Positions 1-13,501 of a stretch of DNA of 46,879 bases are shown in pieces; positions within the stretch are counted from its first letter, which is position 1; each line of letters begins with the position of its first letter. A model generated the notes under the pieces. That model worked only from the letters and a program-made list of their open reading frames with translations. It was not told the DNA's origin and searched no databases. The DNA is from Bacteroidales bacterium (GTDB taxonomy: Bacteria; Bacteroidota; Bacteroidia; Bacteroidales; WCHB1-69). The translations under genes and the position numbers were made by a program. The stretch lies in the NCBI GenBank assembly GCA_017506175.1, contig JAFVNW010000081.1:1-46879 (forward strand), in the 5' to 3' direction.

Positions 1-638
1 GGGATCTGTCGTGTGCGGATGAAATAGTCGGCAATCTGCTGGCGGATGTGCGGCGGGATGAGGTCGCGCCGCTTCTGTTCCTCGCGCCGCCTAGCGACCT
101 TGTTGAAGGGGTTTTCCTTCACCCAGTTGCGGTTGATGAAGTAGTTGAACAGGTTGCGGAAGAACTCCAGGTAGCTGTTGTAGGTCGCTGGGCCGATGTC
201 GGTGCGTGTGCCCAGCTCCTTCATCGCCTTTTCGGCATCTCGGTCGGTGAAGGTCTTGACAGGCATCTGCATCTTCCCGCTCCTGTGCAGGAAGCCATTA
301 AACCATTTGAGATAAGAGTGGTAACTTCTGAAGGTGTCGGGACGGACATTTTTGCCTTTGGTTTCCAGAAATTCCCTGATGCCCTTCTGCATCGAGGTGC
401 CGCTGAAGTAGGCGTCGTTTTCCAGAAACGGGTTCCACCCTTCGTACAGTTTCCGGTTGATTTCGCAGCAAAGTGAGCGTGCGTACCTGTCCCGTTTCTG
501 GCCCCTGCTGACACGGTTCACCTTGATGCGTTTGCGGACCAGCGTTCCGGTCTCAGGGTTGAGGACGTAAAACGCTACATACGAGGATTTTCCGGCATGG
601 TATTCCGCCGGACGGAAGTCTGAAAAAATCGTTGCCAT
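1..638 (-). CDS. Tyrosine recombinase/phage-type integrase, N-terminal part, cut by window edge
   Basis: The minus frame opens with ATG at 638 and has no stop down to position 1, giving 212 residues. Residues 1-40 (AEYHAGKSSYVAFYVLNPE, then basic KRIKVNRV) look like the arm-type DNA-binding domain of Bacteroidetes integrases. Residues of about 100-200 (TFRSYHSYLKWFNGFL, YNSYLEFFRNLFNYF) look like the core-binding SAM-like domain. The catalytic domain with the R-K-H-R-H-Y set would lie outside the window, so activity cannot be judged. The gene points out of the window, away from the Rhs cassettes. A triple TGTCCCG repeat lies 35-63 bp upstream of its start. It is probably the integrase of a genomic island or integrative element. 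Confidence 0.85.
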   Translation of the reverse strand, partial: MATIFSDFRPAEYHAGKSSYVAFYVLNPETGTLVRKRIKVNRVSRGQKRDRYARSLCCEINRKLYEGWNPFLENDAYFSGTSMQKGIREFLETKGKNVRPDTFRSYHSYLKWFNGFLHRSGKMQMPVKTFTDRDAEKAMKELGTRTDIGPATYNSYLEFFRNLFNYFINRNWVKENPFNKVARRREEQKRRDLIPPHIRQQIADYFIRTRQI

Positions 639-672: not shown

Positions 673-701
673 TGTCCCGTTTTTGTCCCGATTCTGTCCC
701 G
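673..701. repeat. Three direct TGTCCCG repeats at 11-bp spacing upstream of the integrase
   Basis: TGTCCCG occurs at 673-679, 684-690 and 695-701, exactly 11 bp apart, so all copies face the same side of the helix. The array lies just upstream of the integrase start at 638. Candidate roles are integrase arm-type sites, an autoregulatory operator or part of an attachment site. The repeat is seen directly; the role is inferred. Confidence 0.75.
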
Positions 702-810
702 CCTTGTTCTTGAAGAATGGACTTAAAACATTGAAAATTACGTTATTATCGTTTGTTTGATTGAATGGAAGTGCCCCAAAACCCGTATGCAAACATAACC
801 AAAAGTTTTG

Positions 811-818
811 TACATTTG
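811..818 (+). promoter_or_regulatory. Putative promoter -7 box for Rhs cassette A
   Basis: TACATTTG matches the Bacteroidetes -7 consensus TAnnTTTG. It lies 18 bp before the ATG at 837 and is preceded by AGTTTTGT, as is the box before cassette B. No clear -33 TTTG was found at the usual distance. Confidence 0.4.
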
Positions 819-836
819 GCGGCTCAAATTTGTTTT

Positions 837-1640
837 ATGAAAAATTGTTGGAACCCATCGTCCATGACGGCCATAACAGGGCCGTGTACGCGGCACTACC
901 ACCCCACGCTCTCCATCTGGCTCAGCGTGGACCCGCTGGCGGACAAGTACCCCGGAGTGAGTCCGTACACGTATTGTGGGAATAATCCGGTTATGTTGAA
1001 AGACCCGGATGGGAGGGAGATAGAAGTAGAAGCAAATAAAGATGGAACCTATACCATAGTAGGAGGCCATTGTAACAATGACAAGAATATATACATCATC
1101 ACAAACGGCGAAAGAACGGGTGTTTTAGGGCAAATGCTAACAAAATATTCATTTTTTGATGAGGATAATAACGTTGTGTTAGGAACCATAATAAATCCAA
1201 AAGACAATTCGGGAAAAAGTTTTTTGATGGATATAAAAAACGACAGACCGATGTTAATAACATACATCATAAATGCAACCGGTGGGGGAAAATATAATTT
1301 TAAAAATAAAGGTATAGATGGAAGAGGAAAGCAATCACTCTCACAATATCATTTACGAGGAATGCCCTTAAATGGTGTCGCTGGTGTAGGTAAGGGCAAT
1401 GTTTATGGGACTGCCCGAGATGTTGGCAACTATGCAGCTGGATTTGTGGCTTCAGCAGCTGGGTTAGACTGGGATGAGGCTCGTTTGGGATTTGATCTAT
1501 ATGAATGCTTGACACGAAGAGAATTCCGACAAGAATGTATGGCGTCACAATCAGCTCAACGTATTGGATATTCTGTTGGTGCATCTGAACGATGGCAATG
1601 GAAATTATATAACAAAATACAATCATGGTTCGATTTTTAA
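837..1640 (+). CDS. Truncated Rhs protein, cassette A: short Rhs core plus unrecognised C-terminal toxin-like domain
   Basis: Residues 19-59 are the end of an Rhs-associated core (RHYHPTLSIWLSVDP, ADKYPGVSPY, NNPV, DPDG). The YD-repeat shell that normally precedes it is missing. The DPDG motif marks the usual switch to a variable C-terminal domain, here about 205 residues. That domain begins with a stretch rich in charged and beta-prone residues (DGTYTIVGG) and ends with GTARDVGNYAAGFVA and QSAQRIGYSVG. I recall similar tails in Bacteroidetes polymorphic toxins, perhaps the type 44 group, but cannot name an activity. ATG 837 was chosen because a -7 box lies at 811-818; an in-frame ATG at 765 would add 24 residues. 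The lipoprotein gene at 1625 starts inside the end of this gene, which suggests a toxin-immunity pair. Without its shell this may be a silent tip cassette rather than a delivered toxin. Confidence 0.7.
   Translation: MKNCWNPSSMTAITGPCTRHYHPTLSIWLSVDPLADKYPGVSPYTYCGNNPVMLKDPDGREIEVEANKDGTYTIVGGHCNNDKNIYIITNGERTGVLGQMLTKYSFFDEDNNVVLGTIINPKDNSGKSFLMDIKNDRPMLITYIINATGGGKYNFKNKGIDGRGKQSLSQYHLRGMPLNGVAGVGKGNVYGTARDVGNYAAGFVASAAGLDWDEARLGFDLYECLTRREFRQECMASQSAQRIGYSVGASERWQWKLYNKIQSWFDF
891..1013 (+). repeat. Rhs core repeat, copy 1 (123 bp)
   Basis: This block aligns without gaps to 2263-2385, with about 13 differences counted by eye, most of them in the last 45 bp. Similarity starts abruptly at CGGCACTACC and ends at GATGGGA, the PDG codons. 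Sequence upstream is unrelated in the two copies. Confidence 0.85.
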
Positions 1641-2077
1641 CGATCTCTTATACGATAGTGGTGGTGGTCACAATGCTTATTGGGTGTAAAAAGAGTTATC
1701 AAGATTCTGCTGGAAATAGTATGACGATAGTTAAACCCTCTTTCTTCAGTACGTACTATTATCTATATCTCAACAACCATCATGAATATGGTTCCAACAG
1801 AAATGGAGATCCCTTGAAAATTGAAATAGCAGCTGATGTTCGAACTGCATTTACTGATAGCACAATCGTAATATGGATATCAGACAAGCAGAAACTGGAA
1901 TTGCCAAACAACGAGACTCCATCATCGTTTGTATTTTACTATGGGTATGAAGAAGTGGAAGTTTTTAACAAGGAGTATTTTTCACCATCAAACTCCATTT
2001 GGGAATGGGATCTATATGAGGGGATTACCCCTCTTTTTTGGAATCATACAAAATGGGAGCCCTGCGTATCGCCTTAA
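1625..2077 (+). CDS. Small lipoprotein, candidate immunity protein for cassette A
   Basis: This 150-residue protein has a hydrophobic leader and the lipobox LIGC followed by KK, so it should be a lipidated envelope protein. It starts 16 bp inside the end of the toxin-like gene of cassette A, in another frame, implying translational coupling. The mature part (about 130 residues) is rich in Tyr, Ser and Trp and shows no domain I recognise. Position and size are those of an immunity gene. An envelope location would suit a toxin acting in the periplasm or on the envelope, but this is inference. Confidence 0.7.
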   Translation: MVRFLTISYTIVVVVTMLIGCKKSYQDSAGNSMTIVKPSFFSTYYYLYLNNHHEYGSNRNGDPLKIEIAADVRTAFTDSTIVIWISDKQKLELPNNETPSSFVFYYGYEEVEVFNKEYFSPSNSIWEWDLYEGITPLFWNHTKWEPCVSP

Positions 2078-2152
2078 TTGAAATCATTAATGCACTGCAG
2101 CCCCCTACATCATAAAGTCTTTACTTACTGACATGGAATCGACAGTTTTGTG

Positions 2153-2160
2153 TATCTTTG
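2153..2160 (+). promoter_or_regulatory. Putative promoter -7 box for Rhs cassette B
   Basis: TATCTTTG fits TAnnTTTG and lies 51 bp before the ATG at 2212. It is preceded by AGTTTTGTG, similar to the sequence before the cassette A box, so both cassettes may carry related promoters. Confidence 0.45.
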
Positions 2161-2211
2161 CTCCATCCATCACCAAACCAATAAACGCATAACCAATCAA
2201 CAATCCGCCCC

Positions 2212-3051
2212 ATGCCCCACCACCTTTCCACTTTCAGTTCTCAATTTTCACCTCCCCCGGCACGGCACTACCACCCCACCCTCTCCATCTGGCTCAGCGT
2301 GGATCCGATGGCGGACAAGTACCCCGGAGTGAGTCCGTACGTGTATTGTGCCAACAATCCGGTGAGGTTGGTGGACCCGGATGGGAAGACAGTAGTGCCA
2401 AATGATGATGATGCTAAACAATTGTATAGTGAATACAAATCAGAGGTTCACAAACGCTTGAATAATGCAAGAGAATCATTGTCTAATTTACAGCAAAAAA
2501 AATTAGAGGGCAATAAAATTAGTGATAGGAAAATTAGAGCGGCACAGAGTGCGGTCAATCAATATCAAACCATTGCAGATGAATTAGAAAAGATGGAAAC
2601 ATCCCAAATTGTTTTTAAAATATATACCCATACCACGGGACCTTCAGTCACTGCATACGGTTCTACAACGTATAATGTTGCAACAGGAGAAGTCAACATT
2701 AATGTGGGAGATGAAAAAAAACAAGTTGTGGATGGGTGGGTCGCTACCATTAGCAGAATTATGATTATAGCACATGAACTCAAGCACGGATTTCAGTACT
2801 TAAAACGTGAGATTGATTTTAATCAAGATGGAACCCAGGGGGGATACCTCTATGATTATACCGATGAGCAAGCTGCGATACGCCGAGGAGCAATGTTTGC
2901 ATTTGGAACCACTATCAATATCAATGCATTTGAAAGAGCATATGGGTTAGGTGCACTTCAAGATCGCAAGGATCCTCGTTCCTATGAATCTTTAACACCA
3001 ATGCAAAAAGAATCATACGATGCACAAAAAGCACATGGAATATATCATTAA
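2212..3051 (+). CDS. Truncated Rhs protein, cassette B: short Rhs core plus HExxH metallopeptidase-like domain
   Basis: This 279-residue protein starts with a 17-residue leader of no clear origin. The Rhs core follows (RHYHPTLSIWLSVDP, ADKYPGVSPYVYC, NNPV, DPDG), almost the same at DNA level as cassette A. After DPDG comes a helical, charged stretch with many Lys, Glu and Gln (residues of about 65-125). A zinc-peptidase-like motif, IAHELKHGFQYL, lies near residues 185-196. Downstream is DYTDEQAAIRRGAMF, whose acidic residues could supply a third metal ligand. I recall the same pairing, HELKH plus a DE-A-RG segment, in C-terminal domains of other Bacteroidetes Rhs proteins. It is probably a metallopeptidase toxin tip. 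The lipoprotein gene at 3035 overlaps its end. The long Rhs shell is absent, so delivery on its own is doubtful. Confidence 0.75.
   Translation: MPHHLSTFSSQFSPPPARHYHPTLSIWLSVDPMADKYPGVSPYVYCANNPVRLVDPDGKTVVPNDDDAKQLYSEYKSEVHKRLNNARESLSNLQQKKLEGNKISDRKIRAAQSAVNQYQTIADELEKMETSQIVFKIYTHTTGPSVTAYGSTTYNVATGEVNINVGDEKKQVVDGWVATISRIMIIAHELKHGFQYLKREIDFNQDGTQGGYLYDYTDEQAAIRRGAMFAFGTTININAFERAYGLGALQDRKDPRSYESLTPMQKESYDAQKAHGIYH
2263..2385 (+). repeat. Rhs core repeat, copy 2 (123 bp)
   Basis: Second copy of the block at 891-1013, with the same left breakpoint at CGGCACTACC and the same end at the PDG codons. The first 80 bp or so are nearly identical to copy 1, which suggests recent duplication or gene conversion. 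Confidence 0.85.
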
Positions 3052-3691
3052 AGTCAATAATCTGACATGCTTGATTATAGCCATCTTGCTCTCATCCTGC
3101 AAGATGTACTCCTATGAGAATATCTGCGGCGAATATGTCATGGATTTTTCTAATATTTTTTTTGAATCAAAGTGGACTATAAATCTTCATGATTCTGGTG
3201 ATTTTGTATTGACAGAGCCCGGAATCGGCTTACTGGGGCCAGACACGCTCTCTGGGGAATACACCATAGTCGGCAACAAGATGATATTGAATTTTGGCAA
3301 TGCCAATCGGTATCAATACAAGCCAGAGCTTGGGGACACCATAACTATACTCCATTTTTATAATAAAAAAACAACCGCCCCGCAAGTATGTGCCATTGAC
3401 ATATACAAACAATTTGGGGAGTGGAATTTTACAACCCACGTTGCAGCCGAAACAGACACCGTTATAGGTCTTTTTGATAGCATTGTATGCTCTACATTTC
3501 TGACCGATACAATAGTCGTCTATCCTCAACACATCGGGTGTGAGATCAGCATCTACCTGTTTAAAGATGATATTCCCGTCAGTGCCCCATATTGGGTGCT
3601 TCCCCAATGGCGGATTTGCTCACAGAATAAACTTTGTGACCCCAATAGATTATTCGTGAAAGCAAAACGGAATATATACAAAAGAAAGTAA
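3035..3691 (+). CDS. Lipoprotein, candidate immunity protein for cassette B
   Basis: From ATG 3035 this is a 218-residue protein with a hydrophobic leader and the lipobox LSSC followed by K. An ATG at 3020 is in the same frame, but the later one gives a better signal peptide. It starts inside the end of the metallopeptidase-like gene, so the two are probably translationally coupled. The mature protein is beta-rich, with several short extended segments (GEYVMDFS, SGEYTIVGNKMILNF) that recall small lipocalin-like or DUF lipoproteins, but I cannot assign a family. It is a candidate immunity factor guarding the envelope against the upstream toxin; the role is inferred from position alone. Confidence 0.7.
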   Translation: MEYIIKVNNLTCLIIAILLSSCKMYSYENICGEYVMDFSNIFFESKWTINLHDSGDFVLTEPGIGLLGPDTLSGEYTIVGNKMILNFGNANRYQYKPELGDTITILHFYNKKTTAPQVCAIDIYKQFGEWNFTTHVAAETDTVIGLFDSIVCSTFLTDTIVVYPQHIGCEISIYLFKDDIPVSAPYWVLPQWRICSQNKLCDPNRLFVKAKRNIYKRK

Positions 3692-3734
3692 TCGCAAATC
3701 CATGTCACCAGTGACTGTAAACCATCACTGCCCT

Positions 3735-3760
3735 CCAAGGATAACAACCAAGGATAACAA
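3735..3760. repeat. Tandem duplication of a 13-bp unit
   Basis: CCAAGGATAACAA is repeated exactly, at 3735-3747 and 3748-3760, in the gap between the cassette B genes and the next lipoprotein. No function is apparent; it may be a slippage product. Confidence 0.7.
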
Positions 3761-3808
3761 CCGAAAGAGCCTTGTCAAGGTAGCAATTCACAAAACGCAT
3801 ATAAACTG

Positions 3809-3838
3809 TTGAAAACAAGAAAATAATAGGTAACTTTG
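3809..3838 (+). promoter_or_regulatory. Putative promoter before the lipoprotein at 3916
   Basis: TTG at 3809-3811 and TAACTTTG at 3831-3838 are separated by 19 bp, a good fit to the Bacteroidetes -33/-7 arrangement. A 7-bp stem with loop CGCA (3852-3869, CCAGCTT paired with AGGCTGG) would lie in the 5' leader. Confidence 0.5.
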
Positions 3839-3915
3839 CAGCGTCAACTTTCCAGCTTCGCAAGGCTGGGGCGTTGGCGAGAAAAAGAGTAAAAACAGAA
3901 GTCAACTGTATTATT

Positions 3916-4392
3916 ATGGGCAGGGGGAACTTAATCTTAATTAAAAGGGGCCATTTTATAATCCTCATAGCTGCTATTCTGATATGCGCTTGCGGAAGGC
4001 TTTTTGGAGTTCTGGATTTGGGAGACGGTTTTTATGTTTTCGAAGGAGAGTGCCCCGAGGACAGAATCATTATTTATAATAATCAAGACAAGATGGCAGC
4101 CAATATAGCAAGCGGAGAAATCATGATCCCCTCTTATGACTATTGGAGGTCAGATTCAATGGATAGTCCCTATGTCCGTGATGTCAAATACAATTCTCGA
4201 TGGGTTTTGGCTACAGTGATGCATAAAGACACCCTGACATATTGGATTTTGGACAAAGAAAAGCCCTTGCAGGAATGTGTTGCGGGGCCACTAACCAAGA
4301 AAGAGTATCATCGGTTGCTTCATTATTCCGAAATTGATGAGGATAGTGGATTTCATATAATCCGTACGTGTATTGTGGGAACAATCCGGTAG
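3916..4392 (+). CDS. Lipoprotein whose 3' end reads into an Rhs core remnant
   Basis: From ATG 3916 this is a 158-residue protein with a hydrophobic segment and a loose lipobox (ICAC). A TTG start at 3874 is possible but would put 14 extra residues before the signal. The mature part has a small-lipoprotein look (VLDLGDGFYVF, WVLATVMHKDTLTYWILDK) that reminds me of DUF3997-type proteins, at low confidence. The last 10 or so residues (RTCIVGTIR) are read from Rhs core DNA in the wrong frame, so the native C-terminus has been lost at a recombination joint near 4361. It may originally have been the immunity gene of a lost cassette. Confidence 0.65.
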   Translation: MGRGNLILIKRGHFIILIAAILICACGRLFGVLDLGDGFYVFEGECPEDRIIIYNNQDKMAANIASGEIMIPSYDYWRSDSMDSPYVRDVKYNSRWVLATVMHKDTLTYWILDKEKPLQECVAGPLTKKEYHRLLHYSEIDEDSGFHIIRTCIVGTIR

Positions 4393-4484
4393 TGTTGAAG
4401 GACCCGAATGGGATGTGGGGGGCTGAAATAAATGAAGATGGTACTTGTGTGATGTTCAGATTTATAATCTCAGATAACGCATGA
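4362..4484 (+). pseudogene. Rhs core remnant C with a very short tail
   Basis: In the frame ending with TGA at 4482-4484, this piece encodes PYVYCGNNPVVLKDPNG, the last part of the Rhs core. A tail of about 23 residues (MWGAEINEDGTCVMFRF and a few more) follows. There is no start codon in a sensible place, and the left end joins directly to the lipoprotein gene. The TGA overlaps the ATG of the next gene at 4481, so the normal toxin-to-downstream-gene coupling is kept although the toxin is mostly deleted. Confidence 0.75.
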
Positions 4485-4948
4485 ATAAACAACAAGTATT
4501 TGGCATCGTTATTTCCTTTTTCATTACGTGTTGCGTTCCTGTTTGTGCACAAAGCATCGTTTTTGAAACAGAAATCGATTATAACAAGATGTATTTCAGG
4601 GAATTGGAAGACACTTTCCGCATCAATATTTATTGGGAAATAGGGACGGTGTCGTTATCAGAACAGTCAAAAAGTGAAATTGATAGTTTGATAAGGTATT
4701 TCAATTCCTTTGACACGTCTGTCCCTATTGATATTTGCTATTGGGATTATGATTGTATACAGAGTTCTGCAACGCTATATAGAAAAAGAGGTTATTATTT
4801 ATTTGATTACCTGAAAGAAAGGCTGAATTATTCCAATATGCGTGTGTATTATAGCAGTGTGGATTGTGAGAGATGGGAAGAAGAGCATGCACTCCCTCTA
4901 TGTAGAATGTTGTCTTTTAAAATTCAAAGGAACAACGAGCAGGAATGA
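4481..4948 (+). CDS. Small secreted protein with a degenerate OmpA-like C-terminal region
   Basis: This 155-residue protein has a type I signal peptide ending near VCAQS (residues 1-25). The middle and end follow the order of an OmpA-type peptidoglycan-binding domain. A segment like LSEQSKSEIDSLIRYF matches the first helix, then a beta strand (VPIDICYWDYD), a helix ending RGYYLFDYLKERL, and a strand (NMRVYYSSVDCE). The canonical Asp and Arg that hold diaminopimelate are not evident, so ligand binding may be lost or changed. Its ATG overlaps the stop of Rhs remnant C. It is possibly an immunity gene that outlived its toxin. The OmpA resemblance is by eye. Confidence 0.6.
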   Translation: MNKQQVFGIVISFFITCCVPVCAQSIVFETEIDYNKMYFRELEDTFRINIYWEIGTVSLSEQSKSEIDSLIRYFNSFDTSVPIDICYWDYDCIQSSATLYRKRGYYLFDYLKERLNYSNMRVYYSSVDCERWEEEHALPLCRMLSFKIQRNNEQE

Positions 4949-5027
4949 TGATGGTTCGTCTTTGAATGCATCTTCCACAACTCAAAAATTGTACCTTTTC
5001 CCCGCCAAACCCTAACGGGAAATTTAT

Positions 5028-5105
5028 CGGAATCATCCCTTTACCTCTTGTAAAAATCGAAACCTGTGATTATGAATACGACAAGATTAAAGGGGGATGA
5101 TTCCG
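5028..5105. repeat. Imperfect inverted repeat, arms of about 24 bp
   Basis: The left arm at 5028-5051 (starting CGGAATCATCCC) pairs with the right arm at 5081-5105 (ending GGGATGATTCCG). The outer 12 bp pair perfectly and the inner parts pair with a few mismatches. The loop is about 29 bp. It lies between two small envelope genes, just before the promoter at 5112-5144. It could be a long hairpin terminator or attenuator, or the ends of a small decayed mobile element. Confidence 0.7.
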
Positions 5106-5111
5106 TTGATT

Positions 5112-5144
5112 TTTGCTTTGACATTTGAAAAAATCTTACTTTTG
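5112..5144 (+). promoter_or_regulatory. Putative promoter for the lipoprotein at 5178
   Basis: TTTG at 5112-5115 and TACTTTTG at 5137-5144 are separated by 21 bp, which fits the Bacteroidetes -33/-7 pattern. The ATG lies 33 bp downstream. This gene therefore seems to have its own promoter. Confidence 0.55.
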
Positions 5145-5177
5145 CGGAAGAAGATAATAGGATGATATATTTTTATT

Positions 5178-5684
5178 ATGTATAAAAGAATCTTTGATAT
5201 TGGCCGAAAGTGCATGATTTTATGCGTTTTATTTTGTTCATGCTGTGAAATGAATAAGCAAGACGCAGCCCAAGTGCTCCAGCCAGACACAAATATGGTT
5301 TCCAATGAGAAAGACAGTGTCTGTATAGCAGATGAATTGTATCATTTTATCCTGTCGCGAAAGCCACTACTTACCAATTGGGACAGCAGTGAGAACAAGC
5401 GTGGCATTATGCTTTCTTTTGATATATCATCCGATGGAGACACTACCTTTGAAATCACCGCGACGTATCGAAACGAAGAATTGCATGATTTTACGGGGGT
5501 GGCCTTCTATGATGATTTTTTCGTCATTATCCTTGATAAAAACAATCTGGGATCAAAATATTACAATGCCAAATTGCTCAATCATCCCCAAAACTTCGAA
5601 GAGAATAATCAGCGGATGGGAATTGTGACATGTGGAATCGTCAGAAACGGGCATCTTTTTGAAGACAATAGGGATTTAGAATAA
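5178..5684 (+). CDS. Small lipoprotein of unknown function
   Basis: This 168-residue protein has a short basic N-terminus and a Cys-rich hydrophobic segment ending LFCSCCEMN, a loose lipobox. The mature part shows alternating polar and hydrophobic strands (GIMLSFDISSDGDTTFEITATY) and a segment like FFVIILDKNNLGSKYYNA; I know no family for it. It has its own promoter and stands after the decayed Rhs cassette C. Together with the four small envelope proteins before it, it looks like another orphan immunity-type gene, but nothing in the protein itself proves this. Confidence 0.6.
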   Translation: MYKRIFDIGRKCMILCVLFCSCCEMNKQDAAQVLQPDTNMVSNEKDSVCIADELYHFILSRKPLLTNWDSSENKRGIMLSFDISSDGDTTFEITATYRNEELHDFTGVAFYDDFFVIILDKNNLGSKYYNAKLLNHPQNFEENNQRMGIVTCGIVRNGHLFEDNRDLE

Positions 5685-5788: not shown

Positions 5789-5799
5789 GAATGTCTGTG

Positions 5800-5873
5800 T
5801 GGTCCCACTCGGGCTCGAACCAAGGACCCGCTGATTATGAGTCAGCTGCTCTAACCGACTGAGCTATGGGACC
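5800..5873 (-). tRNA. tRNA-Met (anticodon CAT)
   Basis: The minus strand folds into a full cloverleaf of 74 nt. The acceptor stem is GGTCCCA/TGGGACC, the D arm GCTCAGTCGGTTAGAGC, the anticodon arm GCTGA-CTCATAA-TCAGC and the T loop TTCGAGC. The discriminator is A and CCA is not encoded. Anticodon CAT could mean elongator Met or a lysidine-modified Ile2; the lack of an unpaired first acceptor position argues against the initiator. I prefer elongator Met. Its 3' end faces the accessory region, the usual side for tRNA-directed integration. Confidence 0.92.
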
Positions 5874-6944: not shown

Positions 6945-6986
6945 AAGTTGAAAATTGAAAGTTGAGAATTGAGAGTTGAGAATTGA
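6945..6986. repeat. Three tandem 14-bp units of the type AAGTTGAGAATTGA
   Basis: The units at 6945-6958, 6959-6972 and 6973-6986 differ at one or two positions. The array fills most of the gap between xerD and the next gene. A related stretch in inverse orientation lies in the leader of Rhs cassette B (about 2231-2250). Confidence 0.75.
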
Positions 6987-7002
6987 AAATTACATTGATA
7001 AA

Positions 7003-7788
7003 ATGATGAAAAAGATAGAAATAGCCATCCTTTGTTTGTTCAGCTTCTTTTTATTGCAGATGCTTGATGTCCAAGCGCAAACCCCGTTGAAAAAGGCGGT
7101 TGCGGGACAGACCTTCCAAGTGCCGTGCGAGCGCATTGACTCGTTGGTGAGCCTTGCGCGGACGAAGAACGGCTGCCACTATAAGCATGCGGGTTCTGGA
7201 CCGAACGTGTTCGATTGCTCCGGCTTCACGATGTGGGTGTATAAACAATTCGGCGTCTCGTTGCCGCACGGCTCCGTCACGCAATATACGCTCGGCAAGA
7301 AGGTCAGTAAGGCGGATTTGCGTCCAGGCGACCTTGTCTTTTTCTATCGCAGTCGTTGTGTCGGGCACGTCGGGCTGGTGGTTTCCGTGGATTCGGTGAA
7401 AGGCGCGACCTATATTCACGCCTCCACCTACAAAACGGGGGTCCGTTATAACCAACTTAACTCCTCAAAATCGTTTGTGGGGGCGCGCCGCATCTTCGAG
7501 TGTGAGGAAATGCCGCAAAACAGCCCTGTAGTTGCCGACAGCGCAAAGGTTGCGGAGATCTCTGTCGCTGACACCACTCAGAGTAGTCCCGCCGTTGCAC
7601 CGGCTCCCGCTCCCCAGCCGGCTCCGAAACCGCAGCCGTCTTATTTTTACCATAAAGTGAAAAAAGGGGAGACGTTGTCGCATTTGGCGCGCCGCTATCA
7701 TACTACCGTCGCCAAAATCCAAAAGTGGAATCGCTTGAAGTCTCCCGACTACATTCGTGAAGGTCAGCGGCTGAAAATCTACAGGTGA
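7003..7788 (+). CDS. NlpC/P60 cell-wall peptidase with C-terminal LysM
   Basis: This is a secreted peptidoglycan endopeptidase of 261 residues. A signal peptide (MMKKIEIAILCLF to about VQAQ) leads into an NlpC/P60 domain. The catalytic Cys is C72 in NVFDCSGFTMWVY, the His lies in GHVGLVVS, and the third polar residue is probably in YIHAST. A linker rich in Pro and Ala (PAVAPAPAPQPAPKP) joins it to one LysM domain near the end (KKGETLSHLARRYHTTV, REGQRLKIYR), which would bind the glycan strands. ATG 7003 was chosen because earlier in-frame codons lie in the repeat array and do not give a signal peptide. It probably cleaves stem peptides during growth. The neighbours xerD and yqeY are housekeeping genes. 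Confidence 0.88.
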   Translation: MMKKIEIAILCLFSFFLLQMLDVQAQTPLKKAVAGQTFQVPCERIDSLVSLARTKNGCHYKHAGSGPNVFDCSGFTMWVYKQFGVSLPHGSVTQYTLGKKVSKADLRPGDLVFFYRSRCVGHVGLVVSVDSVKGATYIHASTYKTGVRYNQLNSSKSFVGARRIFECEEMPQNSPVVADSAKVAEISVADTTQSSPAVAPAPAPQPAPKPQPSYFYHKVKKGETLSHLARRYHTTVAKIQKWNRLKSPDYIREGQRLKIYR

Positions 7789-7885: not shown

Positions 7886-8332
7886 ATGAGTTTAGAAGAA
7901 AAAGTTATGGCGGGTATCAAAGCTGCGATGCTGGCTAAAGACCAACGTGCGCTGGAGGCCCTGCGCGCCGTCAAGGCAGAGATTTTGTTGTTAAAAACGG
8001 CGAAGGATGCCAAACCGATTACGGAGGATGTGGAGCTCAAACTTCTACAGCGTTTGGCGAAACAGCGTCAGGAAGCTGCCGACATCTATAAAAACAGCGG
8101 TCGTGAGGACCTCGCCGCCGAAGAGCTCGCCCAATTGAAAGTCATCACGCAATTCCTTCCTGCCCAGATGTCGGAGGAGGAAATCACCGCCGCCCTCAAA
8201 CAACTGATTGCCGACAATAATATTTCGGGCATCAAGGAGATGGGCAAACTGATGGGACTGGCTTCCAAGCAGTTCGCCGGCAAAGCCGACAACAAGCTGG
8301 TATCCCAGATAGTGAAGCAGCTGCTCTCGTAA
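7886..8332 (+). CDS. GatB/YqeY domain protein
   Basis: This 148-residue cytoplasmic protein is a full-length YqeY-type protein. It has an N-terminal helical part (SLEEKVMAGIKAAMLAKDQ, ALEALRAVKAEILLLK) and a C-terminal part like the tail of GatB (LPAQMSEEEITAALKQLI, MGKLMGLASKQFAGKAD, LVSQIVKQLL). The GatB tail binds tRNA in amidotransferases. The exact role of free-standing YqeY is not settled. It is followed at 21 bp by the DUF389 gene, and the two probably share a transcript. Confidence 0.9.
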   Translation: MSLEEKVMAGIKAAMLAKDQRALEALRAVKAEILLLKTAKDAKPITEDVELKLLQRLAKQRQEAADIYKNSGREDLAAEELAQLKVITQFLPAQMSEEEITAALKQLIADNNISGIKEMGKLMGLASKQFAGKADNKLVSQIVKQLLS

Positions 8333-8353
8333 ATGCTTAATATTTTGCGTTAA

Positions 8354-9766
8354 ATGGAAGACAATATCGATAAAACGGGAAGCCCCGAAAGTAAAAACCG
8401 CACTTTCAAGGACCTTCTGCAATTGGCATGGCGCTACCTTGTGTCGTTGGTTCGCATCCAGGAAGACACGGACATCGAGGCGACAATTGCGAATATCAAC
8501 AAGGGGGTTAACTTTAGAGGAGTCAATGCCTGGGTTCTTTGCTTTGCCATCGTCATCGCCTCTGTCGGCTTGAATGTCAATTCCACGGCAGTCATCATCG
8601 GCGCGATGTTGATTTCTCCGCTGATGGGGCCCATCAATGGCTTGGGGCTGGCGGTAGGAATTTACGACTGGGATTTGCTGAAGAGGTCGCTGCGCAATTT
8701 GGGCGCGATGGTGCTCATCAGCTTGTGCGCCTCCACGCTCTATTTTCTGCTCTCTCCGTTGGGCGATGCGCAGTCGGAGCTGCTGGCTCGAACTCGTCCT
8801 ACTATTTTTGACGTGTTGATTGCCACTTTCGGTGGTCTGGCGGGCATCGTGGCCTCATCCCGAAAAGAGCAGCCGGCCCCAGTCATTGCCGGCGTCGCCA
8901 TCGCCACCGCTTTGATGCCGCCCCTATGCACCGCTGGCTTCGGGCTCGCCACCCTGCAATTCAAGTACTTCATCGGCGCCTTCTACCTCTTTTTCATCAA
9001 CTCTTTCTTCATTGCCCTCTCCACCTTTGTCATCGTTCGCTACCTTCACTTTCCCAAGCACAGCTTTGTTGATAAACACCGTGAAAAGGTAGTGAAACGT
9101 TCCATCATTGTCATTGCCATCCTTGTGCTGGTTCCTAGTTGCATCACCGCCATCAGCGTGGTTCGCGAAAGCTATTTCAACTCGCATGTGAACAAGTTCC
9201 TCACCGATATTCGAAGCGAAAACCTGCTTAAAAATGCGCAAATTGTCAGCTATGAGATAATGTATGACCGAGACAACCCCACTCTTGAATTGTCGGTGTT
9301 GGGCGATGAGGTCACGCAGGCGCAAATCGACACGCTCCACACCATTATGCGCAAGGAATACGGACTGAACACCACCGAATTGAAAATCCGACAGGGCAGT
9401 TTCTTTAATGCAAATAATCAGGCGCAGATTCTGGAAAATCTCGTTAGAAGTAAGGATGAGGAAATAGGAATCAAAGACGCCGCTATCGCTCAACTCACGG
9501 ATTCTATTAGAGGCCTGCAAACCGGTCATCGTCTTTTCGCCGATAAAACCCAACTGATTGGCGAGAAGTATAAGGACGATATTGCCTCTATTTCAATCGT
9601 GGATGTCCCTTATTTCAATCCGTCTGATGGTTCCAGCCAAAAAATTCCGACGATTTACATCGTATGGAAAGATTCTGCCCCTCATCGCGACATTGTCCTG
9701 TCTGAACTGAATAAATGGGCCCCCGCGTTGCTTGGCGTTCAAAATGTTCAAATCGTCACTATGTAG
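8354..9766 (+). CDS. DUF389 integral membrane protein
   Basis: This 470-residue protein has a cytoplasmic N-terminal segment, then a membrane block of about residues 55-270 with several helices. It includes the conserved DUF389 stretch NSTAVIIGAMLISPLMGPI and the later APVIAGVAIATALMPPLC. A soluble C-terminal part of about 190 residues follows, with a likely short coiled coil near DEEIGIKDAAIAQLTDSI. The family is of unknown function; the membrane topology is clear, but a substrate cannot be stated. Its stop is 11 bp from the stop of the convergent asd gene. Confidence 0.88.
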   Translation: MEDNIDKTGSPESKNRTFKDLLQLAWRYLVSLVRIQEDTDIEATIANINKGVNFRGVNAWVLCFAIVIASVGLNVNSTAVIIGAMLISPLMGPINGLGLAVGIYDWDLLKRSLRNLGAMVLISLCASTLYFLLSPLGDAQSELLARTRPTIFDVLIATFGGLAGIVASSRKEQPAPVIAGVAIATALMPPLCTAGFGLATLQFKYFIGAFYLFFINSFFIALSTFVIVRYLHFPKHSFVDKHREKVVKRSIIVIAILVLVPSCITAISVVRESYFNSHVNKFLTDIRSENLLKNAQIVSYEIMYDRDNPTLELSVLGDEVTQAQIDTLHTIMRKEYGLNTTELKIRQGSFFNANNQAQILENLVRSKDEEIGIKDAAIAQLTDSIRGLQTGHRLFADKTQLIGEKYKDDIASISIVDVPYFNPSDGSSQKIPTIYIVWKDSAPHRDIVLSELNKWAPALLGVQNVQIVTM

Positions 9767-9777
9767 GGAGTGGGGAG

Positions 9778-10773
9778 TTAATTTTTTTCCCCTCGCTTTT
9801 CAATCAATTTCTGCATAATCTGTATGGCGTTCGTGGCAGCGCCTTTGCGCAAATTGTCAGCCACAATCCATAGATTCAATGACTTGGGCTGCGATTCGTC
9901 GCGGCGGATGCGCCCAACGAAGACCTCGTCCTTGTCCTTGGCAAAGCGCGGCATTGGGTATTCGTTTTGGTCGGGATTGTCCATGACAACCACGCCTGGC
10001 ATTTCGCTAAGCAGCCGGCGTATATCCGCCATATCAAACTCATTCTCGAATTCCACGTTCACGGCTTCTGAATGACCACCGAAAACAGGTACGCGCGCAA
10101 CAGTAGCGGTGATTTTTATCTTGTTGTCGGATAATATCTTACGTGTTTCGTTCACCAGTTTCATCTCTTCGGTGGTATAGCCGCTGGGCTCGAAAGTGCC
10201 GCCGTGAGGCAGTACATTCAGGTCTATTTCGTAGGGATAGGCCTTCTCGCAGGGCTCTCCAGCGCGTTCGCTGTTTAATTGCGTGACCGCCTTCACGCCC
10301 GTGCCCGTTACCGACTGGTAGGTGGCGATGACTAAACGGTGAATCGTATATTTCCAATGCAGAGGTGCCAGTGCAAGTACCATTTGGATGGTGGAACAGT
10401 TTGGGTTGGCGATGATGCGGTCGTCGGCTTTCACTGCATCAATGTTGATTTCGGGCACAACTAACGGAATATGCTCGTAGCTGCGCCAGGCGGAGGAGTT
10501 GTCAATAACGGTCGTGCCCACTGCAGCGAATTGCGGGGCATAAGTCAGCGATGCACTGCTACCTGCGGAGAAAATCGCGAACTGCGGTTTTGCTGCAATC
10601 GCATCCTCCACCGAAACCACCTTGACCTGACGACCAGCAAACGTAATCTCTTTGCCAACCGACCGTACTGAAGCTGCCGGAATCAATTCGCAATCCTGAA
10701 AACCTCTCTCTTCCAATACTTTAAGCATAACGCTGCCCACTAAACCAGTGGCTCCGACTAATGCAATTCTCAT
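9778..10773 (-). CDS. asd: Aspartate-semialdehyde dehydrogenase
   Basis: This enzyme reduces aspartyl phosphate to aspartate semialdehyde with NADPH, the branch point to lysine, diaminopimelate, threonine and methionine. It is a cytoplasmic protein of 331 residues, the normal length. An NADP-binding loop lies at the start (MRIALVGATGLVGSVMLKVL). The catalytic Cys is C126 in NPNCSTIQMVLAL. The segment TYQSVTGTG and the His in VPVFGGHSEAVNVEF are also typical. Its product feeds the DapD step encoded at 40734. It has its own divergent promoter, back to back with that of the gene at 10886. Confidence 0.95.
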   Translation of the reverse strand: MRIALVGATGLVGSVMLKVLEERGFQDCELIPAASVRSVGKEITFAGRQVKVVSVEDAIAAKPQFAIFSAGSSASLTYAPQFAAVGTTVIDNSSAWRSYEHIPLVVPEINIDAVKADDRIIANPNCSTIQMVLALAPLHWKYTIHRLVIATYQSVTGTGVKAVTQLNSERAGEPCEKAYPYEIDLNVLPHGGTFEPSGYTTEEMKLVNETRKILSDNKIKITATVARVPVFGGHSEAVNVEFENEFDMADIRRLLSEMPGVVVMDNPDQNEYPMPRFAKDKDEVFVGRIRRDESQPKSLNLWIVADNLRKGAATNAIQIMQKLIEKRGEKN

Positions 10774-10823
10774 ATCAAATGTTATTAATTGTTAATTATT
10801 TTTAAGTCAACTGAAAAACTCTG

Positions 10824-10841
10824 CAAATATACATACTTTTG
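10824..10841. promoter_or_regulatory. Divergent promoter pair, asd (minus) and lamin-tail gene (plus)
   Basis: Positions 10824-10831 read TATATTTG on the minus strand. Positions 10834-10841 read TACTTTTG on the plus strand. The two -7 boxes are only 2 bp apart, so each promoter's -33 region would lie over the start region of the other. Confidence 0.6.
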
Positions 10842-10885
10842 TGCGTTGATTTTGATGAAAATAATCTCTTAAACTAAATTTTCTT

Positions 10886-13501
10886 ATGAAAAAACTCATC
10901 TTGCTCATTGTCAGCTTGTTGGCTGTATTCCCAATCTACTTGTTTCCCCAGATTTCCGACGATTTTTCCGATGGTGACTTCATTGAAAATCCCGCTTGGA
11001 GTGGCGATGATTCCCTCTTTGTCGTGAATGAACAGCAGCAGTTGCAATTGCAGGCCTCTGCAGCTGGTAATGCCGCTTTGGTTTTGCCCAATAGTATTGA
11101 GGAGAGTGAGATGGAATGGCGTTTCCGCATCCGTCTGGCTTTCTCGCCTTCAGATAATAATTACGCTCGCGTTTTCTTGATGGCTGATTCAACCGATTTG
11201 CGCGCACCCACGCTCTCCGGCTTTTTCCTTCAGTTCGGTGAAGCCGGTAGCAATGATGTGATTGAATTATTCCATTTGTCTGAAAATCAAAAAAATACAG
11301 TGTGTCGCGGGCGTGCATCCGTCAGTTCCTCTTTTACATATAATATAAAGGTGAATAAAAATGCGCAGAATCATTGGCAACTTTGGGTCGATTCACGCTC
11401 TTCGGGCATCTATTCCCTGGATGCCGAGGGCGATTGCCTATCGGTTGCGCAGCCCGTTTCCAATCGGGCCTTCGGGTTCTACTGCGTCTTCACCTCTGGA
11501 AACCGCAATAGGTTTTATCTGGACGATGTCTATATAGGACCGCCCATTGTGGACACAATACCGCCAATTTTACTGTCTGTGGAAACCGATTTGTTGGCGC
11601 CCAATCAGCTGCTGCTGACTTTTTCGGAGCCGCTTACCGACTTGAGTGCTCTGAGTGAACAAAATTATCATATCCGAGAGACGGGCGATTTCGCAGGTTT
11701 GTGCGAGTTCGAAGGAGAAGGACAGAGGTCGGTGCGGCTTTTCTTTTCTGAGGATTTTCAGCAAAGAAGAATGTATCATCTTGAGATTTACGGAGTTAGG
11801 GACCTGTCTGGGAATCAGATTAGAGTGGTGGAACATGAATTTGTCTTTTACAAATTGCAACGCAATGAAGTGCTGATAACTGAAGTCATGGCAGACCCTT
11901 CTCCGCCGGTTGGCTTGCCTGAGTGTGAGTATCTAGAGATTTATAATTCTTTGCCGTTTCCCATTTGTCTGAAGAACTGGAAGCTGCAGCTGAATTCCAC
12001 AATGAAGTACTTGCCTGAGATACTTCTGCCAGCCACTGGCTATGGTTTGCTGACAACGGAATCGTCAGCGCCGCTTTTGGCTGATTATGGGAACGTTATT
12101 GCTTTGCCCTCTTTTTCGATTTCGGATGAGGAACAGATAATTACGCTTTTGGATGAAAAGGGTGAGGTCATGTTTTATCTGTCCTATCAGAAAAGTTGGC
12201 ACCGAAATGCCTTGAAGCGGGGTGGGGGATGGGCGTTGGAGATACTGGATATGCATAATCCCTGTGGGGGAAAAGATAATTGGGACTCATCGGTGGATGC
12301 CCGTGGAGGAACTCCAAGCGAGGCGAATTCGGTTTCTTCCGACAATCCGGATGTCTTGAATCCTGTTTTGGTTAAAGTTGTCGTGACGGACTCTATCCAT
12401 CTTCGTGTATTCTTTTCGGAGCCGATGGTTGTGGATACGCAGATACTGAAGGAAGGGCTTATTTTGGACCACGGACTATCGGTGGTGGCTGCTATCGTTG
12501 TTGCTCCAGCATTTTGTATGGCGGAGCTGACGTTGTCGGAACCGCTTTCCCCCGCTGTGATTTACACCCTTACGTTGAATGGAGTAGTGTGCGACTGCGT
12601 CGGCAATCCTGCACCGACAGGCACATTTCTCACTTTCGGTCTGCCATCCCGCCCATTTTTCAACGATTTGAAAATCAACGAGGTTCTTTCCAATCCTATG
12701 GGGGATACAGATGGCGATTTTGTGGAAATATATAATGTTTCCGATAAAATCATTGATTTGGGGAACGTGATGATGGGAACGGGAAATGGTGACCTTCCGG
12801 ATAATGCGCTGCCAGTTATTGCGGATGGTTTTCAGTTGTTTCCTCATCAGTATGCTGCCATTTGCAAGAATCGAGCGTTGACATTGTCGCAATACGTTGT
12901 GCCAAATCCTGCGGCGTTGCTCGAAAATTCCAAGTTGCCTGCCCTGCCGAACGATGCGGGTTGCATACATCTACTGACGCAGGATTTTTCGCCCATTGAT
13001 CGCTTCGCGTACGATATTTCCATGCATTGCAGTTCGCTTAGTTCCACCGATGGTGTTTCTTTGGAGAGAATTCATCCGGATGGAGTTACGCAGGATGAGA
13101 TGAATTGGACCTCCGCAGCCGAGAGTTACGGTTGGGCAACGCCTGGCTATCGGAACTCGCAATTCTCCGAAATCGCTGTTGATGAGAATGCAATTCAGGT
13201 TATTCCAGCTCTCTTTTCTCCCGATGGGGACGGCTACAATGATTTCGCTGAGGTCGTCTGCAATCTCCAAGAAAGCGAATATCGGATTACTGTTGTGATT
13301 TACAATAGCAATGGGTTGAAGGTTAAGCAGTTGGCAAATAATGAAGTGGCGGCTTACGAAGTCCGTTACCGTTGGGATGGACAGACGGAGGACCGTCGTC
13401 CCGCCTTGAATGGATTGTATGTCGTCCAAATCCAGATTTGGAAAGCAGATGGTAAAACCAAACGCTATCGGCGTTCGGTTGCATTGACAAGGAAATCATG
13501 A
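10886..13501 (+). CDS. Large secreted protein with lamin-tail domains and a FlgD-like C-terminal domain
   Basis: This 871-residue protein has a signal peptide (MKKLILLIVSLLAVFPIYL). Residues of about 25-215 look like a jelly-roll lectin-type domain. Two Ig-like bacterial segments (PPILLSVETDLLAPNQLLL near 227; VLVKVVVTDSIHLRVFFSE near 495) each precede a lamin-tail domain. Those start at NEVLITEVMADPSPPVGLPE and FNDLKINEVLSNPMGDTDGD, with the typical E-YLEIYN and DFVEIYN motifs. The last 85 residues (ALFSPDGDGYNDFAEV, YNSNGLKVKQL, NGLYVVQIQIW) form a FlgD-like or gliding-associated C-terminal domain of the kind that can act as a T9SS signal. It is probably exported by the T9SS and surface-attached; its ligand is unknown. 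Confidence 0.82.
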   Translation: MKKLILLIVSLLAVFPIYLFPQISDDFSDGDFIENPAWSGDDSLFVVNEQQQLQLQASAAGNAALVLPNSIEESEMEWRFRIRLAFSPSDNNYARVFLMADSTDLRAPTLSGFFLQFGEAGSNDVIELFHLSENQKNTVCRGRASVSSSFTYNIKVNKNAQNHWQLWVDSRSSGIYSLDAEGDCLSVAQPVSNRAFGFYCVFTSGNRNRFYLDDVYIGPPIVDTIPPILLSVETDLLAPNQLLLTFSEPLTDLSALSEQNYHIRETGDFAGLCEFEGEGQRSVRLFFSEDFQQRRMYHLEIYGVRDLSGNQIRVVEHEFVFYKLQRNEVLITEVMADPSPPVGLPECEYLEIYNSLPFPICLKNWKLQLNSTMKYLPEILLPATGYGLLTTESSAPLLADYGNVIALPSFSISDEEQIITLLDEKGEVMFYLSYQKSWHRNALKRGGGWALEILDMHNPCGGKDNWDSSVDARGGTPSEANSVSSDNPDVLNPVLVKVVVTDSIHLRVFFSEPMVVDTQILKEGLILDHGLSVVAAIVVAPAFCMAELTLSEPLSPAVIYTLTLNGVVCDCVGNPAPTGTFLTFGLPSRPFFNDLKINEVLSNPMGDTDGDFVEIYNVSDKIIDLGNVMMGTGNGDLPDNALPVIADGFQLFPHQYAAICKNRALTLSQYVVPNPAALLENSKLPALPNDAGCIHLLTQDFSPIDRFAYDISMHCSSLSSTDGVSLERIHPDGVTQDEMNWTSAAESYGWATPGYRNSQFSEIAVDENAIQVIPALFSPDGDGYNDFAEVVCNLQESEYRITVVIYNSNGLKVKQLANNEVAAYEVRYRWDGQTEDRRPALNGLYVVQIQIWKADGKTKRYRRSVALTRKS

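What the first reader, a model, noticed from the sequence alone, without database searches (positions are those of the whole stretch)
837..5684. Array of orphan Rhs tip cassettes, each with its own small envelope protein, between an integrase and a tRNA
Three Rhs core fragments lie in 4.8 kb with no Rhs shell gene in the window. Each keeps only the end of the core plus a different tail, and each is followed by or joined to small lipoprotein or secreted genes. Two cassettes have promoter-like -7 boxes of their own, both preceded by AGTTTTGT. In other bacteria, displaced Rhs tips are kept behind a full rhs gene and swapped into it by recombination in the core. Here all partner genes encode envelope proteins, which would suit toxins that act in the periplasm or on the envelope. 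This would be a tip store with an unusually uniform immunity location.
Basis: partly seen in the sequence, partly recalled or inferred. Interest (0 to 1): 0.82.

Follow-up and report, generated by a model that had tools for sequence, protein, structure and literature searches.

The report
Integrase-headed store of Rhs toxin tips
Uncultured gut Bacteroidales keep spare, ready-to-read toxin tips with their likely antidotes in a row that points away from the gene of the toxin-delivery protein, with a phage-type recombinase gene between the two, which suggests (but does not show) a dedicated way of changing the weapon's payload.

Summary
The Rhs fragments are real: two half-core toxin-tip cassettes (837-1640, 2212-3051) and one frame-broken remnant (4353-4412), with five small envelope-protein genes. 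Shell genes lie elsewhere in the genome. The window shows one end of a conserved locus in related uncultured Bacteroidales: tip cassettes <- leader | tyrosine integrase -> LamG/T9SS-sorted protein -> SpvB-type Rhs shell with a full core. The first stored half-cores are thus inverted relative to the shell's core. In a LamG-anchored survey, every intact integrase with its other side visible faces a partial core (9 of 9); loci without integrase show none (0 of 10 with at least 1.9 kb visible). The integrase's non-Rhs relatives sit 116-137 bp from tRNA 3' ends in 10 of 12; here leader and half-core take the tRNA's place. Leaders carry an in-frame start and often a promoter box. Related tips occur on stored and shell-borne cores, and two close genomes switch sequence where the half-core begins. 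Partner genes look like envelope proteins (70 of 76, home-made rule). The tip-store reading is well supported. That the integrase does the swapping is plausible but unproven; no inverted state was seen.

The parts
3..638 (-). Tyrosine integrase, N-terminal 212 of 376 residues, cut by the contig start; 95% identical to the complete copy on contig C28 of the same genome
   Evidence: Pfam Phage_integrase in the C28 copy
673..702 (.). Three direct repeats TGTCCCG at 11-bp spacing upstream of the integrase; same type and side as in two of its tRNA-adjacent relatives, the GGCGCA type in nine others
787..871 (+). Leader A core: promoter-like TAnnTTTG (811-818), start codon and leader peptide; 5 copies in this genome
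837..1640 (+). Cassette a: leader + Rhs half-core (888-1013) + tail A (1014-1637)
1625..2077 (+). Partner (immunity-like) lipoprotein gene of cassette a
   Evidence: lipobox by a home-made rule; no family match
2153..2160 (+). Promoter-like TATCTTTG of cassette b
   Evidence: set of 57 cassettes against shuffles
2212..3051 (+). Cassette b: leader B (MPHHLS...) + half-core (2257-2385) + tail B (2386-3048, HELKH zinc-peptidase-like motif)
3020..3691 (+). Partner lipoprotein gene of cassette b; tail and partner are found together in G005:C9 (65% and 69% identity)
3874..4392 (+). Lipoprotein-like gene without a toxin partner; its end overlaps the core remnant in another frame
4353..4415 (+). Core remnant c (about 20 residues, 45-aa frame, no start, no toxin tail)
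4481..4948 (+). Secreted-protein gene, orphan immunity-like by position only
5178..5684 (+). Lipoprotein gene, orphan immunity-like by position only; its end also lies beside the same tRNA in G011
5799..5873 (-). tRNA-Met, host neighbour of the array

Best explanation
The window shows the store end of a chromosomal Rhs weapon locus. A conserved run, tyrosine integrase -> LamG/T9SS-sorted protein -> giant SpvB-type Rhs shell with a full core, a tip and a partner gene, is flanked on its integrase side by a divergent array of spare tips. Each spare tip has, as a rule, its own start codon, a short leader peptide, the second half of the Rhs core, the tail and its partner gene; about a third also have a promoter box. 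Shown: this architecture, its recurrence across genera, the in-frame leaders, related tips in stored and shell positions, a sequence switch at the leader/half-core junction between close genomes, and envelope-type partner genes. Inferred: recombination at the shared core puts a stored tip on the shell. Because the first stored half-cores are inverted relative to the shell's core, a reciprocal exchange would invert the integrase-LamG-shell segment and lose neither tip. Also inferred: the integrase, related to tRNA-adjacent phage-type enzymes and with its attachment side now facing the leader and half-core, promotes this exchange or the addition of cassettes at the leader. The tails are probably toxins acting in the periplasm or envelope of target cells.
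For: Complete locus on one contig: L149, half-cores 7276-7461 and 8320-8505 (-), integrase 8801-9922 (+), LamG 10001-11518, shell 11568 on, full core 20079-20315 (+). LamG-anchored survey, 24 loci of this group (4 remote hits of 28 dropped): intact integrase in 10; in the 9 with at least 300 bp visible beyond it, 9 of 9 have a divergent partial core (the tenth has 182 bp visible); integrase remnants, 1 of 3; no integrase, 0 of 10 with at least 1.9 kb visible (an eleventh shows 63 bp). Integrase relatives: of 24 matches in 104 genomes, 12 are Rhs-linked and 12 are not; of the latter, 10 have an ARAGORN tRNA 116-137 bp away, one more shows a tRNA sequence at its contig edge, and none of the 12 has a core in the 7-20 kb fetched. 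Twelve Rhs-linked ones have the half-core 225-333 bp away. Direct repeats between integrase and that side: 11 of 12 non-Rhs, 12 of 12 Rhs-linked examined, two of these only by a loosened pattern. Leader peptide length is constant from ATG to FTFSAKE in 8 of 8 leaders of the second lineage. In-frame ATG in 57 of 62 half-core cassettes; TAnnTTTG within 90 nt in 20 of 57 against a shuffled mean of 3.6, maximum 9 in 500. Related tips shared between full and half positions. L145 and L147 are about 94% identical through LamG, integrase and leader, then switch at the start of the half-core to divergent core alleles and different tips. Leader copy on the second cassette of L160. Partners 70 of 76 envelope-type against 64 of 157 control frames; HExxH in 19 of 79 tips against 0.6 in shuffles.
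Against: No inverted state of the same locus was seen in any two genomes. Full core and inverted half-core of one locus are only 73-85% identical, so exchange within a locus is not recent there. The same sequence switch and shared tips could come from ordinary homologous recombination. Shells persist without integrase (11 of 24 LamG loci), and tip stores exist without one (C33, C73). The integrase tree does not settle one origin for the Rhs-linked group, and one Rhs-linked enzyme (G034:C3) has R where the others have the active-site H. The candidate crossover palindrome in leader A is no better than other local windows. The loci are related and not independent. All data are fragmented MAGs, and in G000 no contig joins the C40 array to a shell. 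Toxin and immunity roles are inferred from position and, for some tips, family matches; most tips matched no family.
Confidence: 0.6

Rival explanations
1. Ordinary C-terminal displacement plus a mobile locus: tips move by RecA-type recombination in the core, and the integrase only moves the whole int-LamG-shell block between chromosomal sites.
For: Tip stores without an integrase in the stretch held are common: C33 and C73 of G000, G012:C12, G001:C14, G083:C30. L145 has other chromosomal neighbours than L147 and L149, which share theirs, although its integrase and LamG are nearly those of L147. Integrases near rhs genes in Snodgrassella were suggested to aid transfer (PMC5727410 passages).
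Against: Does not explain why every intact integrase faces a half-core at a similar distance (9 of 9), or why the switch between L145 and L147 lies at the very start of the half-core. No tRNA was found in the ten Rhs loci with an intact integrase that were scanned.
Confidence: 0.3
2. Self-standing toxin-immunity pairs: the cassettes are kept because they are expressed and addictive or defensive, as for orphan Rhs tips in Salmonella or orphan immunity arrays in Bacteroidales, not as a supply for the shell.
For: In-frame starts and, in 20 of 57, promoter boxes. Salmonella orphan tips are expressed from internal promoters as toxin-antitoxin modules (PMC7043789 passages). The last three partner genes of the window lack tails, and leader A also heads immunity-like genes alone on C33 and C48.
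Against: Partners carry export signals (70 of 76), so they would not neutralise a tip made and kept in the cytoplasm. Related tips occur on full-length shells.
Confidence: 0.3
3. Decaying debris: leftovers of old rearrangements with no present function.
For: Core remnant c, the frameshifted core on C10 and integrase remnants in L151, L152 and L161.
Against: 57 of 62 half-cores keep an in-frame start; leaders are constant in length in 8 of 8 aligned; tail B and its partner stay paired in G005.
Confidence: 0.08

Closest known systems
Rhs orphan tips from C-terminal displacement (Enterobacteria, Snodgrassella)
   Same: Truncated core + toxin + immunity gene, core homology to a full rhs gene, tips re-usable by recombination (PMC5727410 and PMC8125069 passages)
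   Different: Described behind the full gene; L149 has such a row too, but also an inverted, divergent store on the other side, with start and leader, next to an integrase in the shell's operon-like run
SpvB/TcdB-type Rhs next to T9SS sorting-domain genes (Apibacter)
   Same: SpvB shell domain and T9SS-sorted neighbour (PMC8125069 passage)
   Different: No integrase or inverted tip store is mentioned in the passages seen
rAID (recombinase-associated acquired interbacterial defence) of gut Bacteroidales
   Same: Tyrosine recombinase beside an array of small immunity genes (PMC12247911 passages)
   Different: rAID arrays are orphan immunity genes downstream of and co-oriented with the recombinase; here tips with core are divergent from it and a shell follows
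Integrons and Bacteroides DNA-inversion systems (recalled)
   Same: Integrase facing a promoter-bearing leader followed by cassettes; inverted repeats around a constant segment
   Different: No attC-like site or inverted state was shown; the enzyme's relatives are tRNA-adjacent and phage-type
Salmonella orphan rhs expressed as toxin-antitoxin
   Same: Stored tip with its own promoter (PMC7043789 passages)
   Different: There the immunity protein neutralises by direct binding and no export is mentioned in the passages seen; here partners look exported

Membership tests
Rhs orphan-tip store | Partial Rhs core joined to a toxin-like tail | tested here: met
   (two of the three fragments)
Rhs orphan-tip store | Full rhs gene with matching core in the genome | tested here: met
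   Cores on C27, C46, C52 are 83-92% identical to window half-cores over 127-130 nt
Rhs orphan-tip store | Related tips on full-length Rhs elsewhere | tested here: met
Rhs orphan-tip store | Toxicity of tails and protection by partners | not testable with these tools
   none
T6SS-delivered Rhs | T6SS present in the genome | tested here: not met
   No T6SS_VipA match in G000 (91% complete); E. coli control rings; only this one component was sought
SpvB/TcdB-type Rhs with T9SS neighbour | SpvB and TcdB-mid domains in the shell, Por sorting domain next door | tested here: inconclusive
   L060 proteins: SpvB 99.8 bits (cut-off 22) and Por_Secre_tail 29.7 bits (cut-off 27) met; TcdB_toxin_midN 19.1 bits, below its cut-off of 24.8
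rAID | Two or more co-directional orphan immunity genes downstream of the recombinase | tested here: not met
   The array is divergent from the integrase and holds tip tails; homology to the rAID recombinase was not tested
Integron | attI/attC-type sites and cassette insertion by the integrase | tested here: inconclusive
   Leader copies with a common left edge, but no site proven; palindrome weak
Invertible DNA (shufflon-like) | Both orientations found | tested here: inconclusive
   Inverted core pair present; no second orientation found
tRNA-integrating phage element | Integrase beside a tRNA 3' end, phage genes | tested here: not met
   No tRNA in the ten Rhs loci with an intact integrase scanned; the window tRNA is about 5.2 kb from the integrase and a host neighbour

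The most novel reading that the evidence does not exclude
A domesticated phage-type tyrosine integrase, encoded as the first gene of an Rhs weapon operon, has exchanged its tRNA attachment site for a leader/Rhs-core site and works as a payload-changing machine: it adds or exchanges leader-bearing tip-immunity cassettes, and by inversion between the inverted half-core and the shell's core swaps the delivered toxin without losing the old one.
Probability: 0.33. Interest if true: 0.88.

Novelty: new variant of a known kind. Interest (0 to 1): 0.66.

Why it matters
How polymorphic toxins change their tips is usually put down to chance homologous recombination. A conserved recombinase sitting between a delivery shell and an inverted store of translated tips would give that exchange a candidate enzyme and make it testable. 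The nearly uniform envelope-type partners and the peptidase families among the tips also suggest that this SpvB-type route, in a genome without a detected T6SS sheath gene, delivers its payload to the periplasm rather than the cytoplasm.

Tried and rejected
Window tRNA-Met as attachment site: rejected, because the hairpin beside it is conserved in G010:C6, which has a different gene and no core there. A recent copy of the tRNA end elsewhere in the genome: only other tRNA-like matches of 70-83% over longer stretches and short matches were found. A palindromic crossover site in leader A: arms match at 3-8 of 11 positions (6-8 in 10 of 13 leaders), above the background mean of 3.4 (23 of 139 background sites reach 6) but not above the local maximum of 7-8, so not claimed. 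Showing an inversion by finding L145's host neighbours on the far side of the shell in L149: no match. Naming tail A: no Pfam or NCBIfam family; one of the 77 tips scanned, not tail A, matches Ntox44. A single origin of the Rhs-linked integrases: not settled. T6SS delivery: no VipA in the genome. Structure prediction was not run.
Full report
What is in the window. The window is the whole contig C40 of a 2.46-Mb genome in 99 contigs. Named relatives that carry the same locus are uncultured Bacteroidales MAGs, many of them from ruminant or other herbivore gut by their record titles. Two Rhs half-cores (888-1013 and 2257-2385) and one short remnant (4353-4412) lie on the plus strand. Cassette a runs 837-1640 and cassette b 2212-3051. 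The remnant sits in a 45-aa frame without a start and carries no toxin tail. Each cassette overlaps the start of a lipoprotein gene (1625-2077; 3020-3691). Three further small lipoprotein or secreted genes follow (3874-4392, 4481-4948, 5178-5684). The integrase (3-638, minus strand) is cut by the contig start; a complete copy with the same leader and a different array is on contig C28.

The genome has shells. One search found 17 core matches in the genome, 12 of them over the cut-off. Long cores lie on C27, C46, C52 and C35, the first in a 1288-aa frame with RHS repeats. Half-cores lie on C40, C28, C33, C73 and C10. The left edge of most half-cores is sharp and shared within the genus. In a second genus the edge lies about 20 residues further to the left, mostly at model position 13-22.

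The integrase belongs to the shell. On C28, G010:C39, G037:C4 and G034:C3 the integrase is followed by a 478-526-aa protein and then by the shell. The G010 copy of that protein has a T9SS sorting domain, and the G010 shell has SpvB, with a TcdB_toxin_midN match below its cut-off. Anchored on the LamG-like protein, 24 loci of this group were examined: 28 were returned and 4 remote hits dropped. An intact integrase is present in 10. In the 9 of these with at least 300 bp visible beyond it, a partial core points the other way, 9 of 9. Integrase remnants occur in 3, of which 1 has the divergent core. The other 11 have no integrase and no divergent core in the stretch visible, which is 63 bp in one of them and about 2 to 10 kb in the other 10. 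The MAGs are related and three of them contribute two loci each, so the loci are not independent. L149 shows everything on one contig: two half-cores inverted, integrase, LamG, shell, full core with tip; three further core-bearing frames follow the shell in the shell's own direction.

Where the enzyme comes from. In one search the integrase model had 24 matches in 104 genomes of the family; 12 are Rhs-linked and 12 are not. Of those 12, 10 have an ARAGORN tRNA 116-137 bp from the integrase start, one shows a tRNA sequence at its contig edge, one has none found, and none has a core in the stretch fetched. Two of the 12 carry TGTCCCG-type repeats, nine carry GGCGCA-type repeats and one has neither; the Rhs-linked enzymes of the window's genus and G037 have the first type (G037 and G007 only by a loosened pattern) and those of the second lineage have the second. 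In Rhs loci a leader and half-core stand on the side where the tRNA stands in the relatives. The active-site R, K, H and Y columns are the same as in the relatives, except that the enzyme of G034:C3 has R in the place of H. The tree gives two well-supported Rhs-linked groups and does not decide between one origin and two.

The stored tips look like genes. 57 of 62 half-core cassettes have an in-frame ATG upstream of the core. 20 of those 57 have TAnnTTTG within 90 nt of it, against 3.6 on average and at most 9 in 500 shuffles; some of these leaders are close relatives of each other. In the second lineage the leader peptide has the same length in all 8 leaders aligned. In the window's genus, 18 of 30 cassettes not next to an integrase have a leader beginning MP.

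Tips and cassettes move. Among 84 core-bearing stretches (22 full, 62 half, 10 of these next to an integrase), related tips occur in full and half positions: the G006 shell tip matches the C10 orphan at 64%, the L153 shell tip an orphan in G024 at 64%, and weaker pairs (32-37%) link shell tips to leader-position tips. Tail B and its partner gene are found together in G005:C9 (65% and 69%). In searches of 247 genomes tail B had matches in 6 and tail A in 8, own genome included; tail B's relatives include a 699-aa Rhs frame with a nearly full core, and tail A's sit on longer cores in other genomes. L145 and L147 match at about 94% through LamG, integrase and leader and then switch at the beginning of the half-core. 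L147 and L149 share host neighbours while carrying different arrays; L145 has other neighbours in the stretch held. The promoter-start part of leader A occurs five times in G000 (contigs C40, C28, C10, C33, C48). In places without an integrase in the stretch held its left edge falls at window positions 787-793 in five separate loci (C33; C48 and G011; G012 and G001; G006; G004); two weak matches, in G009 and G008, have other edges and were left out, and C10, also without an integrase, keeps a longer leader reaching to about 680. At two syntenic sites (C48 against G011:C166, G012:C12 against G001:C2) the sequence after the leader differs between species. In L160 the second cassette carries a 94%-identical copy of the first cassette's leader over 80 nt. 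These are marks of exchange or addition at the leader, but they do not say which enzyme does it.

Envelope toxins. 70 of 76 partner frames start with a hydrophobic segment, 15 of them with a lipobox, against 64 of 157 control frames, by a home-made rule; 3 further tips had no partner frame. HExxH occurs in 19 of 79 tips, against 0.6 in shuffles. Family scans of 77 of the 79 tips matched Toxin-JAB1 (6), Peptidase_M91 (3), TseH (2), Tox-MPTase2 (2), Peptidase_M10 (2), Ntox44 (1), SprT-like (1) and four others (1 each) in Pfam, and four NCBIfam models, three of them metalloproteases by name and one a type III effector family (2 tips); no nuclease or deaminase family is in the lists, but most tips, both window tails included, matched nothing. 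Zhang et al. describe an immunity lipoprotein (Imm65) as exceptional and tied to Tox-JAB-1 (PMC3482391 passages). The genome has no T6SS_VipA match. A periplasmic site of action is the simplest reading.

What is known. Orphan tips by C-terminal displacement, Rhs-associated integrases in bee symbionts, SpvB/TcdB Rhs beside T9SS genes in Apibacter, recombinases near polyimmunity loci, rAID arrays and promoter-driven orphan tips in Salmonella are all in print (passages seen). In the seven paper searches made no listed title or abstract start described an integrase in the shell's own run with an inverted tip store; most subscription journals are outside that library.

What stays open. No inverted state was seen, cores within a locus differ by 15-27%, the crossover point is not defined, and the role of the integrase rests on position and conservation. 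Ordinary recombination with a mobile shell block remains a serious rival.

Noticed in passing
window 2212-2256 and 6945-6990: The DNA that codes leader B of cassette b resembles, in reverse, an AT-rich repeat downstream of xerD (73% over 33 nt); other cassette leaders (IVHCSLSIVHSP) may also be translated dispersed repeats.
   Followed up: partly
L023 10275-11015 and L064 708-1556: Same chromosomal neighbourhood in G000 and G011, same leader, but different tip after the half-core: a natural tip exchange without an integrase nearby.
   Followed up: partly
L151 about 2589-4483; L155 about 1600-3465; L157 about 1599-3289: Extra coding-like sequence lies between integrase and LamG in several loci and upstream of LamG in loci that lack the integrase; its function was not examined.
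   Followed up: no
L067 453-5489: Two Rhs frames with full cores stand in tandem in G001:C14, each with its own partner gene, followed by half-core cassettes.
   Followed up: no
L028 8020-8090: A further core remnant on C10, running into the start region of another secreted-protein gene.
   Followed up: no
L099, L100, L101: Three nearly identical integrases beside tRNA-Met in three species of the window's genus, with different or phage-like neighbours.
   Followed up: partly
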